Virus record (IMG/VR): IMGVR_UViG_3300005518_000013
Location: 1 to 40,477 of that record
Source of the DNA: a virus
Direction: 5' to 3' (one strand)
Length of the DNA: 40,477 nt
Below, piece by piece: positions 612 to 7,986 of the stretch. The position numbers were made by a program, and so were the translations under genes. A model generated the notes under the pieces. It did not search any database. It was not told the origin of the DNA and saw nothing but the letters and a program-made list of their open reading frames with translations. Position 1 is the first letter of the stretch. The number at the start of each line of letters is the position of its first letter.

Positions 612-697
612 CGGAAGATGCGCTCTAGGACGCGACACTCGGCATCGAGGAGCCAGCGCGGCCATAGGCCGAGGAACGCGAAGGCGAAGCGGCTCAC
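608..697 (-). CDS. Microprotein, 29 aa
   Basis: GTG at 697 overlaps the HAD gene stop (GTGA), and its own TGA overlaps the next ATG (ATGA), so it fits exactly into a coupled chain. The product starts MSRFAFAFLGLWPRWLLDA and ends with a charged helix, giving an amphipathic, probably membrane-associated peptide. Its reality rests on the two perfect four-base junctions. No homologue is known to me. Confidence 0.6.
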   Translation of the reverse strand: MSRFAFAFLGLWPRWLLDAECRVLERIFR

Positions 698-1254
698 GGC
701 GTCTCTCCGGCGGCGAGGGCGGCACGAGCGGTAACGATCGCCTCAGCCCAACGCTCCTCGATCTCCATGTGCCCGGACCGGACCGGCGTGATCCGTCGAA
801 TGTCGGTCGTCGCATCGAGAAGTTCCCGCAGCGCCTCTCGCAGCCCCGGCTCCGCTGCCGGACGAGCGGCACGGGCGGCGGCGGCCATCGGTCCCCACTG
901 CGCTCCCCATTCCATGAATGGCCAATCGGCGATCCGCTCTGTGTGATCGTCGTCGATCTGCAATGCCGGGCGGCGGCCCACGATGCGGAGTGCGTCGTCC
1001 TCGGTCGGCGGGTAGGTGGGCTTCTCGTGGATCGTGAACGAGCCGTAGATGCCCGCCCGGTTGATGGCCTCGCCAGCATGGCGTGTGCCTCCGGCCGACC
1101 AGAACCGGACCTCGAAGCCGAGGCACATCAGCGTGTCAACGAGCCACCCCGCTCCGGGCAGCGGTGTCCCGTCCGCTGAGAGAATCACGCCGTCAATGTC
1201 AAACAGGACGATCGGGCTCATGGCCGTCTCGGCGCTCTGGCGGTCGGCTGTCAT
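694..1254 (-). CDS. HAD-superfamily phosphatase-like protein, 186 aa
   Basis: The haloacid-dehalogenase motif I appears as LFDIDGVIL with the catalytic Asp pair near residues 19 and 21. A motif II Ser/Thr lies in the FWSAGGT segment, and an acidic motif IV is seen as LQIDDDH. HAD enzymes use the first Asp as nucleophile to dephosphorylate small molecules, nucleotides or polynucleotide 3' ends; the substrate here cannot be told. The start at 1254 is chosen because GGAGG lies six bases upstream and the ATG overlaps the stop of the membrane peptide gene (ATGA). An ATG at 1221 nearer motif I lacks a good ribosome site. The C-terminal third is Ala/Arg-rich helix. Confidence 0.85.
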   Translation of the reverse strand: MTADRQSAETAMSPIVLFDIDGVILSADGTPLPGAGWLVDTLMCLGFEVRFWSAGGTRHAGEAINRAGIYGSFTIHEKPTYPPTEDDALRIVGRRPALQIDDDHTERIADWPFMEWGAQWGPMAAAARAARPAAEPGLREALRELLDATTDIRRITPVRSGHMEIEERWAEAIVTARAALAAGETP

Positions 1255-1367
1255 CGCCAGCCTCCGACAATGAGTAGCCCGAAGATGAGGCCGATGTACG
1301 CGCCGAGTTTCAGCGCGCCGATGATGTCGCCGTACTTGATCGGCGTCTTGCGGCTCGTGGTCGCCAT
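1251..1367 (-). CDS. Single-span membrane peptide, 38 aa
   Basis: Reads MATTSRKTPIKYGDIIGALK and then a hydrophobic stretch (GAYIGLIFGLLIVGGW), ending at TGA that overlaps the HAD start (ATGA). The basic N-terminus before one transmembrane helix predicts an N-in orientation. It is the first gene after a 160-base structured leader whose last hairpin contains its GGAGG site and touches its ATG. The function is unknown; candidates are a small holin-like, exclusion or stress peptide. The leader suggests tight post-transcriptional control. Confidence 0.75.
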   Translation of the reverse strand: MATTSRKTPIKYGDIIGALKLGAYIGLIFGLLIVGGWR

Positions 1368-1463
1368 TGGAGCTAGGACCTCCAATCGAAACGCCCGCTC
1401 GCACTGGTCCTAGCAGTACGAACGGGCGTCGATGAGTCTATTCGGTTAGCAGCTAGGACCTGC
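1366..1463 (-). promoter_or_regulatory. Tri-hairpin leader with complementary 7-nt loops (candidate kissing-loop switch)
   Basis: Read as minus-strand RNA, three hairpins follow one another. C (1463-1449) has stem GCAG/CUGC and loop GUCCUAG. B (1429-1391) has an 11-bp stem, a U-G pair and ACUG/CAGU, and loop CUAGGAC. A (1386-1366) has stem AUUGGAG/CUCCAAU and loop GUCCUAG. Loop B is the exact complement of loops A and C. The two non-Watson-Crick positions of stem B are G-U wobbles on this strand but A-C mismatches on the other, which points to a minus-strand RNA. Hairpin A holds GGAGG and ends in the AU of the start codon. Regulation by loop-loop pairing is inference. Confidence 0.65.
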
Positions 1464-1527
1464 ACCCATATTGTCTCACACCCGTCAATGGTCGTCCGCG
1501 GTTCCCGGCGCGGGGTGGGGGCCTGGG

Positions 1528-2769: not shown

Positions 2770-3027
2770 CTCCCACGCGCTGATCCGGACGGGCGGCTTG
2801 CCGTGACGGCGTGCGAACGTGGCCGTCCACCCGGCGATCGTCACGGTCTCGACCGAGGCCAGGTCCTTGCGCCATCGGTAGACAGTCCGGACGCTTACGC
2901 CCGTTACTTCCGCCAGATCGCGAATAGCGCCACCAGCGAGAAGCTTCATCGCGAGGCCGGGACTCAATTCGTTCGACGTGGCGCCGTTCTGATAACGCGT
3001 CCAGATGGAGCGACGAAACGCGCTCAC
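2761..3027 (-). CDS. Helix-turn-helix DNA-binding protein, 88 aa
   Basis: A central segment AIRDLAEVTGVSVRTVYRWRKDL (about residues 34-56) is a clear homeodomain/resolvase-type helix-turn-helix, the second helix being the recognition helix. The C-terminal part (TIAGWTATFARRHGKP) is basic and may extend DNA contact. GTG 3027 is the start because it overlaps the upstream stop (GTGA). As the last gene of the P2 operon it is a plausible early regulator or replication factor. Its target is unknown; the DnaA-like boxes and hairpins beside it are candidates. Confidence 0.8.
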   Translation of the reverse strand: MSAFRRSIWTRYQNGATSNELSPGLAMKLLAGGAIRDLAEVTGVSVRTVYRWRKDLASVETVTIAGWTATFARRHGKPPVRISAWERG

Positions 3028-5754: not shown

Positions 5755-6047
5755 GCCATCAGCCCAAGAGCGTCGAGCATCCCATCGGCTACATCCGCAG
5801 CCGCGTTTCCTTCGTCGTCGGTCGCCGGGAGAACCGACAGGAGCATCGGACGGAGACCCCGTGCGATCCGGTTGCGCTCGTCCTCCAACCACGGCTGGAA
5901 CATCTCGACACACAATCTATCGAGGTTCCGGCTCATCAGTTCTCTGCTTTCGGCGAGAGTGAGCGGACGGGTCGGCTCTAGCCCAGCCAGTCGGCGCTCC
6001 ACTTCGGTGAGGTCATCCATACTGCGAGTCTTGTCGGTCGTCTTCAT
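5751..6047 (-). CDS. First gene of operon P2, helical protein, 98 aa
   Basis: ATG 6047 lies six bases after the TACTAT -10 box, so its message should begin at or next to the ATG (leaderless). There is no ribosome site, which agrees. The protein is mostly helix with a leucine-rich start (MKTTDKTRSMDDLTEVERRL) and an acidic C-terminus (ATDDEGNAAADVADGMLDALG). It is unrecognised; as first gene under an operator it may be an early regulator or host-takeover protein. Confidence 0.78.
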   Translation of the reverse strand: MKTTDKTRSMDDLTEVERRLAGLEPTRPLTLAESRELMSRNLDRLCVEMFQPWLEDERNRIARGLRPMLLSVLPATDDEGNAAADVADGMLDALGLMA

Positions 6048-6138: not shown

Positions 6139-6649
6139 AGTCCCCGTCGCCCCCGGCGGGAGAGCGCCAAGCGCTCAAGGGAGAGGCGGAGCGCTGCCGG
6201 GGGGAGGGCCGACGTTCACGCCTCTCCATTGAGGGCTGGGAATGCTCCCGGAGGGGCACGCGGTCCGGGAGCGGGTGGAGCGCAGATCGCCGCGACGATC
6301 CTTCCTCGCGCTGGTCGCGTGGCGCCCCGCGATGGGCAGCAGCCAGGATCACGGGCTCTCCTCTCGGAGGCGTGAACTGCTGCCCATCGCTAGGAGCCGC
6401 GATAGATGGGGCGCCGCCCTCCTGGACGACCGGCGAGCTCAGAGACACTCGGGGTGTGCGCGACGGCGCCCCGGTCCGCGCCGAAAGCCCCACCGGGATG
6501 GAAGGGTTCGACGCGGGCCTAGGAGCCGCGAGGGTGAATGGGTGGCGCTGGTAGCCGATGACGTGCTCGATGCCGCCGGCCTTGAGGCGGACGATGCGGG
6601 CCTCCAGTCCGCAATAGCCACACAAAAGGATCTCGTCGGGCGGGATCAT
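6137..6649 (-). CDS. N-terminal zinc-knuckle protein with long disordered tail, 170 aa
   Basis: The first 35 residues (MIPPDEILLCGYCGLEARIV and on) form a CxxC knuckle with an HVIGYQRHPF segment. The remaining ~130 residues are Ser/Pro/Arg-rich and low in complexity, so they are likely disordered, or only the 5' part is functional. The ATG overlaps the upstream stop (ATGA), and the TAG lies in the terminator stem. A 13-base repeat (ctaggagccgcga) occurs twice within the tail-coding part. Confidence 0.65.
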   Translation of the reverse strand: MIPPDEILLCGYCGLEARIVRLKAGGIEHVIGYQRHPFTLAAPRPASNPSIPVGLSARTGAPSRTPRVSLSSPVVQEGGAPSIAAPSDGQQFTPPRGEPVILAAAHRGAPRDQREEGSSRRSALHPLPDRVPLREHSQPSMERRERRPSPRQRSASPLSAWRSPAGGDGD

Positions 6650-7786: not shown

Positions 7787-7986
7787 GCGGCCTCACGCGC
7801 CTTGCGGAGCGCCTCCATGACTGCGGCGTACTCCGCGCCGGATGGGACGAGACGGCCATGCTCGGCCATCGACAGGATCGCCTTGTCGACGCCGGACAGC
7901 CGGGCGAGCTCGCGGATAGAGATGCCGAGCGCCACGCGCTCAGGCCCCCACGCAGCGCCTCCGGTTGTCAGCCTCCGTTCGCTCAT
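7783..7986 (-). CDS. Xre/Cro-family HTH regulator, 67 aa
   Basis: A five-helix Xre domain fills the protein: an N-terminal helix (GPERVALGIS), then IRELARLSGVDKAILSMAEHG as the HTH, then a final helix (EYAAVMEALRKAREAA). The ATG lies seven bases after a -10-like box, so the message should be leaderless. A palindrome in its own promoter suggests autoregulation. It is the best candidate for the master early repressor, acting on its own promoter and perhaps on P2. Confidence 0.85.
   Translation of the reverse strand: MSERRLTTGGAAWGPERVALGISIRELARLSGVDKAILSMAEHGRLVPSGAEYAAVMEALRKAREAA

What the first reader, a model, noticed from the sequence alone, without database searches (positions are those of the whole stretch)
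1366..1463. Three hairpins with exactly complementary 7-nt loops ahead of a membrane peptide gene
Read as minus-strand RNA, hairpins C, B and A have different stems (4, about 16 and 7 bp) but loops GUCCUAG, CUAGGAC and GUCCUAG. Loop B can pair fully with loop C or loop A, and seven-base kissing loops are known from ColE1 RNA I/RNA II. Stem B has two G-U pairs on this strand that would be A-C mismatches on the other, so the RNA is what is conserved. Hairpin A holds the GGAGG and the AU of the start codon. C and A could compete for B as an on/off switch for the 38-aa peptide and the genes coupled to it. Antisense or protein-bound versions are possible.
Basis: partly seen in the sequence, partly recalled or inferred. 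Interest (0 to 1): 0.9.

Follow-up and report, generated by a model that had tools for sequence, protein, structure and literature searches.

The report
Loop-matched RNA switch in phage leaders
A short leader RNA in front of early phage genes carries three hairpins whose loops match each other even where other phages have changed the loop sequence, which points to an uncatalogued RNA-based on/off control of phage replication, probably a lysogeny or immunity switch like those of phages P4 and P1.

Summary
On the minus strand, window 1463-1366 holds hairpins C, B and A with loops GUCCUAG, CUAGGAC and GUCCUAG; shuffles never gave such a triple.

It is an uncatalogued RNA family. I found 12 further distinct copies, on IMG/VR phage contigs and on contigs of Olsenella, Atopobiaceae and Chloroflexota. 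The loops change as a set: GUCCUAG, GUAGUAG, GUGGUAG, GUACUAG, GUAGUGG. B is always the exact complement of C and A, except in L340, where A is degenerate. The GUAGUGG copy (L321) was reached by protein homology plus a covariance model, not by a loop pattern. Stems covary strongly. Rfam has no match.

Order: -10-like site, C, second -10-like site, B, A over the ribosome-binding site, gene. Downstream lie replication genes (O-like initiator, DnaC-like loader), HNH genes or membrane peptides.

Best explanation: B is also a small antisense RNA whose loop kisses C and A of the leader and shuts the operon. The topology is that of P4 CI RNA with seqA/seqC and of P1 C4, but the structure is unrelated to C4. 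Structure and loop covariation are shown; antisense action and immunity are inferred.

The parts
1470..1475 (-). P1: -10-like hexamer GACAAT, ending 10 nt before loop C; the leader would start at hairpin C (inferred promoter)
   Evidence: A -10-like hexamer ends 9-11 nt before loop C in 9 of 12 members, e.g. TATAAT in L210 and L192. Picked as best match in a short window; not tested against shuffles.
1449..1463 (-). Hairpin C: 4-bp stem, loop GUCCUAG (1453-1459); upstream target
   Evidence: stem covaries in relatives; loop pairs with B in all 8 aligned members.
1435..1440 (-). P2: -10-like hexamer TAGACT between C and B (inferred promoter for B)
   Evidence: TANNNT 11-14 nt after loop C in 8 of 12 members; chance about 4e-12 if members were independent, which they are not fully.
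1390..1430 (-). Hairpin B: 17-bp stem with G-U pairs, loop CUAGGAC (1407-1413); proposed antisense RNA
   Evidence: stem covariation. Followed by U-tracts in relatives L302 and L205.
1366..1386 (-). Hairpin A: 7-bp stem, loop GUCCUAG (1373-1379), containing GGAGG (1379-1383) and the AU of the start codon; downstream target
   Evidence: loop pairs with B in all 8 aligned members.
1251..1367 (-). First gene under control: 38-aa peptide MATTSRKTPIKYGDIIGALKLGAYIGLIFGLLIVGGWR with one hydrophobic stretch
   Evidence: Open frame starting in hairpin A; no PHROGs match.
694..1221 (-). Next gene: protein weakly like a haloacid dehalogenase hydrolase
   Evidence: Open frame (start of MSPIVLFD chosen inside the listed ORF); Pfam Hydrolase_6 E = 0.003, below its cut-off.

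Best explanation
A phage leader RNA that controls early genes by loop-loop antisense pairing. Transcription from P1 makes a leader with hairpin C at its 5' end, then B, then A over the ribosome-binding site of the first gene. Hairpin B is also made on its own, from P2 and/or by termination or processing at its 3' side, as an RNA of about 45 nt. Its 7-nt loop kisses the identical loops of C and A in leader transcripts. Pairing with A locks the ribosome-binding-site hairpin and stops translation; pairing with C at the 5' end, and lack of translation, lead to early termination. The early (replication) operon therefore stays off while B RNA is present, as in a lysogen or on superinfection, and the loop word would set the immunity group. 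Shown: the structure, the strand, covariation of stems and of the loop set, the conserved order of sites. Inferred: the promoters, a separate B RNA, the direction (off), termination, immunity.
For: Loops change as a set and B stays complementary to both C and A in 12 of 13 distinct elements; L321 was found without using a loop pattern and shows a new matched change in all three loops. Stem and loop covariation. A lies on the start site in every intact member. -10-like sites ahead of C and between C and B; U-tract after B in L302 and L205. Downstream genes are early/replication: O-like initiator and DnaC-like loader in L192, initiator-like proteins in L225/L251/L321/L210. Five of eight other element-bearing records carry a tyrosine integrase. 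The same topology is known for P4 CI RNA, which silences replication genes through an upstream and a downstream target (PMC4825925; P4 record), and P1 C4 RNA acts at a ribosome-binding site and sets heteroimmunity (PMC12197685).
Against: No transcript data. The second -10-like site is missing or unclear in L302, L205, L316 and L293, and -35 boxes are weak. B is linked to its targets in cis, so a cis switch explains the covariation equally well. The window record itself shows no integrase and no recognisable replication gene after the element, though it may be a fragment. Some records also have HTH_3 proteins that could be protein repressors.
Confidence: 0.6

Rival explanations
1. Cis-only switch: within one leader, B pairs either with C or with A. 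The C-B contact frees the ribosome-binding site, the B-A contact locks it, and transcription kinetics or a signal decides.
For: C, B and A lie on one transcript at near-constant spacing; RNAalifold itself prefers to pair loop B with loop A; covariation is equally expected.
Against: Does not explain the conserved -10-like site between C and B in 8 of 12 members, which would make B-A transcripts that lack C.
Confidence: 0.27
2. RNA-based replication or copy-number control, in the manner of ColE1 RNA I/RNA II or the RNA-based origins of extrachromosomal mycobacterial prophages.
For: Kissing loops are used there (own knowledge); non-coding RNA is required for replication of some actinobacterial prophages (PMC7157519); replication genes lie downstream here.
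Against: ColE1 antisense comes from the opposite strand; here all copies are on one strand. Hairpin A sits on a start codon in every intact member, which points to control of a gene. Most records with the element carry an integrase.
Confidence: 0.05
3. DNA operators: three copies of GGTCCTAGC bound by a repressor protein, the hairpins being incidental.
For: The 9-mer is present three times in 90 bp and nowhere else in the window; a few HTH_3 proteins exist.
Against: Stems differ between the three sites yet covary within each site; G-U pairs occur on this strand; orientation X / complement / X is the same in every member; loops are exactly 7 nt; A always sits on the start site.
Confidence: 0.04

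Closest known systems
Phage P4 immunity: CI RNA with targets seqA and seqC
   Same: Order upstream target - antisense RNA - downstream target - early/replication operon; antisense RNA encoded inside the leader it controls (PMC4825925; P4 record).
   Different: P4 CI belongs to Rfam C4: a long stem enclosing two hairpins, with targets spread over about 300 nt. Here a single hairpin with one 7-nt loop, all within about 100 nt, and no Rfam match.
C4 antisense RNA of P1/P7 and relatives, RF01695, with targets c4-a1b1, RF03163
   Same: Pairs around a ribosome-binding site of an early gene and sets heteroimmunity (PMC12197685). Some C4 loci share the 9-mers GCUACCACC/GGUGGUAGC with L192, L270 and L302.
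   Different: Fold and covariance model differ; in C4 the 9-mer lies in the closing stem and tail, not in a hairpin loop. The model R1 scores the C4 locus L259 only at E = 0.27, and on the opposite strand.
P22 sar RNA
   Same: Phage antisense RNA that blocks translation of an early regulator (PMC12197685).
   Different: No three-hairpin target-antisense-target leader is described there; not compared by sequence here.
ColE1 RNA I/RNA II kissing complex
   Same: Seven-base loop-loop contacts (own knowledge).
   Different: ColE1 partners come from opposite strands and control a replication primer; here all copies are on one strand and one sits on a start codon.

Membership tests
C4 antisense RNA, RF01695 (P1 C4, P4 CI) | Match to the Rfam covariance model at its gathering score | tested here: not met
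   No match in the window or in ten related loci, even at E up to 0.5-10; P4 and enterobacterial controls match at 75-86 bits.
C4 antisense RNA, RF01695 (P1 C4, P4 CI) | Long stem enclosing two hairpins | tested here: not met
   B is a single hairpin with a 7-nt loop against the C4 structure shown.
C4 antisense RNA, RF01695 (P1 C4, P4 CI) | Targets both upstream and downstream, the latter near the start of an early gene | tested here: met
   C upstream and A on the start site, both complementary to B.
C4 antisense RNA, RF01695 (P1 C4, P4 CI) | Stable processed antisense RNA that represses in trans | not testable with these tools
   No transcript data held; a -10-like site between C and B is suggestive only.
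ColE1-type RNA I/RNA II | Antisense RNA from the opposite strand of its target | tested here: not met
   All three hairpins are read on one strand; the opposite strand turns G-U into A-C and folds less well in 10 of 12 members.
Any Rfam 15 family | Match at gathering score | tested here: not met
   no match up to E = 0.5 in eleven related loci.
This three-hairpin family (model R1) | Stems C, B, A conserved, and loop B complementary to loops C and A | tested here: met

The most novel reading that the evidence does not exclude
A new family of loop-coded RNA immunity modules in phages of Actinobacteria and probably Chloroflexota: one 7-nt loop word, repeated as target, antisense and target, both silences the early operon and defines the immunity group, so that changing the word in all three loops creates a new immunity type.
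Probability: 0.45. Interest if true: 0.88.

Novelty: new variant of a known kind. Interest (0 to 1): 0.78.

Why it matters
RNA-based lysogeny control is known mainly from enterobacterial phages (P4, P1, P22). This would be a compact, structurally different version in phages of other phyla, absent from Rfam, with five loop words already visible. It makes directly testable whether a phage immunity group can be specified by a 7-base RNA word, and it offers a small orthogonal loop-loop regulator. It also shows that alternating complementary hairpin loops are a usable signature for finding RNA regulators that sequence searches miss.

Tried and rejected
Exact-loop search (GGTCCTAGC...GCTAGGACC) in viral contigs: 6 loci, none with the three-hairpin form. 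HAD-like neighbour as query: no relatives. B-stem sequence pattern: 118 loci, only the L028 contig real. Loop pairs in L018 and L159/L162: chance or tandem repeats. Most hits of the GTNNTAG pattern are C4 loci, coding repeats or chance. Model R1 in genomes: 1 of 398 Coriobacteriia, 0 of 396 Actinomycetota (no known positive in that draw, so it shows little), 2 of 301 Chloroflexota including degenerate L340. Relatives of the nearby phage protein other than L028 gave no triple. L322 and L323, which encode the replication-type protein, have no element directly upstream. No related DNA in named phages or plasmids beyond chance. No further target copies: the 9-mers occur only in the elements within the held loci. 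Papers on actinophage antisense immunity: nothing relevant found.

Full report
OBSERVATION. On the minus strand the window reads: -10-like GACAAT, hairpin C (GCAG-GUCCUAG-CUGC), an 18-nt spacer with TAGACT, hairpin B (17 bp, loop CUAGGAC), a 3-nt spacer, hairpin A (7 bp, loop GUCCUAG) whose stem ends inside the AUG. The element is stable (z = -3.6) and such a triple is not expected by chance. The 9-mer GGTCCTAGC occurs only here. The 7-bp loop contact is worth about -9.3 kcal/mol as a plain duplex. The window is an IMG/VR virus record.

RELATIVES. Relatives of a nearby phage protein gave 57 loci. A loop-agnostic scan for three hairpins with complementary loops found one other triple, in L028, with different loops: GUAGUAG, CUACUAC, GUAGUAG. 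A pattern that fixed five of the seven loop bases but left the two middle ones free in each loop then found L210, L225, L251, L192 and four near copies, L205, and contigs of Candidatus Olsenella (L270), Atopobiaceae (L302) and Chloroflexota (L293, L316). In each of these the two free bases match in all three loops, which the pattern did not require. The loop words are GUCCUAG, GUAGUAG, GUGGUAG and GUACUAG.

TEST WITHOUT A LOOP PATTERN. The replication-type protein of L225/L251/L028 was used as query. One hit, L321, does not match the loop pattern. The covariance model R1, which holds no loop-loop pairing, found the element there at 65 bits, E = 6e-11. Its loops are GUAGUGG / CCACUAC / GUAGUGG: the same position changed in all three loops and complementarity was kept. 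A later pattern scan for GUNNUGG loops returned only this contig as a true member. L340 in a Chloroflexota genome is a weaker copy (41 bits) with C and B loops matched and a degenerate A loop.

COVARIATION. On eight sequences, 20 stem pairs are 96.2% standard (79.6% shuffled), 11 pairs have double changes, and the covariation score is 0.498 against 0.154, 0 of 500 shuffles; slid controls collapse. One pair of hairpin C appears as CG, GC, UA and AU. Loop pairs C-B and B-A are 100% standard with two compensatory columns, 0 of 500 on the covariation score, though only about a fifth to a quarter of shuffles differ on the coarser counts. Five of seven loop columns are invariant in this set, partly because the search pattern fixed them; L321 shows that at least one of these can change too. 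Minus-strand RNA folds better than the opposite strand in 10 of 12 members.

LAYOUT. In 9 of 12 members a -10-like hexamer ends 9-11 nt before loop C, and in 8 of 12 a TANNNT hexamer lies 11-14 nt after loop C, shortly before B, often as TCGAATANNAT. B is followed by GCGUUUUU in L302 and CGCUUUUUU in L205, as in intrinsic terminators. Hairpin A covers the start region in every intact member. -35 boxes are weak, so the promoter calls are inference.

CONTROLLED GENES. L192: NUMOD4-HNH, then an O-like initiator and a DnaC-like helicase loader. L225, L251, L028 and L321: one protein family weakly like replication initiators, directly after the element in L225 and L251. L210: initiator-like (E = 0.008) and VRR-NUC. 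L302: NUMOD4-HNH. L270: an HTH-rich protein. Window and L205: short peptides with one hydrophobic stretch. Five of eight other element-bearing records have a tyrosine integrase, so the family occurs in temperate phages.

COMPARISON. P4 CI RNA pairs with seqA upstream and seqC downstream and silences P4 replication genes by early termination (PMC4825925). On the P4 record Rfam finds c4-a1b1 (just under its cut-off), then C4, then the gene. P1 C4 acts around a ribosome-binding site and sets heteroimmunity (PMC12197685). Topology and type of target agree with our element; fold, size and sequence model do not. So it works like C4/CI, as far as anatomy tells, but is not a member of that family. The 9-mers GCUACCACC/GGUGGUAGC shared between some members and C4 loci may be convergence or distant kinship; this is open.

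LIMITS. No named phage isolate carries the element in the collection searched, no expression data exist, and host assignment of the window rests on weak DNA similarity of one gene to Gordonia phages. The pattern scans fixed some loop bases, so the diversity of loop words is underestimated. Relatedness among members means the covariation counts are not independent events.

Noticed in passing
L311 (Mycobacterium kyorinense) 5799-5867: GCTATAACC / GGTTATAGC / GCTATAACC around a ribosome-binding site and start codon on the minus strand, an arrangement like enterobacterial C4 targets, in a mycobacterium.
   Followed up: no
L259, L190 and many enterobacterial loci: The loop 9-mers GCTACCACC/GGTGGTAGC of L192, L270 and L302 are identical to antisense/target segments of Rfam C4 loci; P4 has GCTATCGCC/GGCGATAGC.
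   Followed up: partly
window 7804-7938 (-) and 2863-2934 (-): HTH_3 matches (Cro/CI-like small proteins), so a protein repressor may coexist with the RNA element.
   Followed up: no
window 6151-6256 and 6318-6401: Two long imperfect inverted repeats (38 nt at 76%, 25 nt at 84%) close together.
   Followed up: no
L340 1501-1613: Chloroflexota copy in which loops C and B still match (GUACUAG/CUAGUAC) but hairpin A is degenerate (GGUGGUCUAG next to the AUG): a possible natural variant lacking the downstream contact.
   Followed up: partly
L205 2254-2540: As in the window, the element precedes a short peptide with one hydrophobic stretch (57 aa), here with a clear U-tract after hairpin B.
   Followed up: partly
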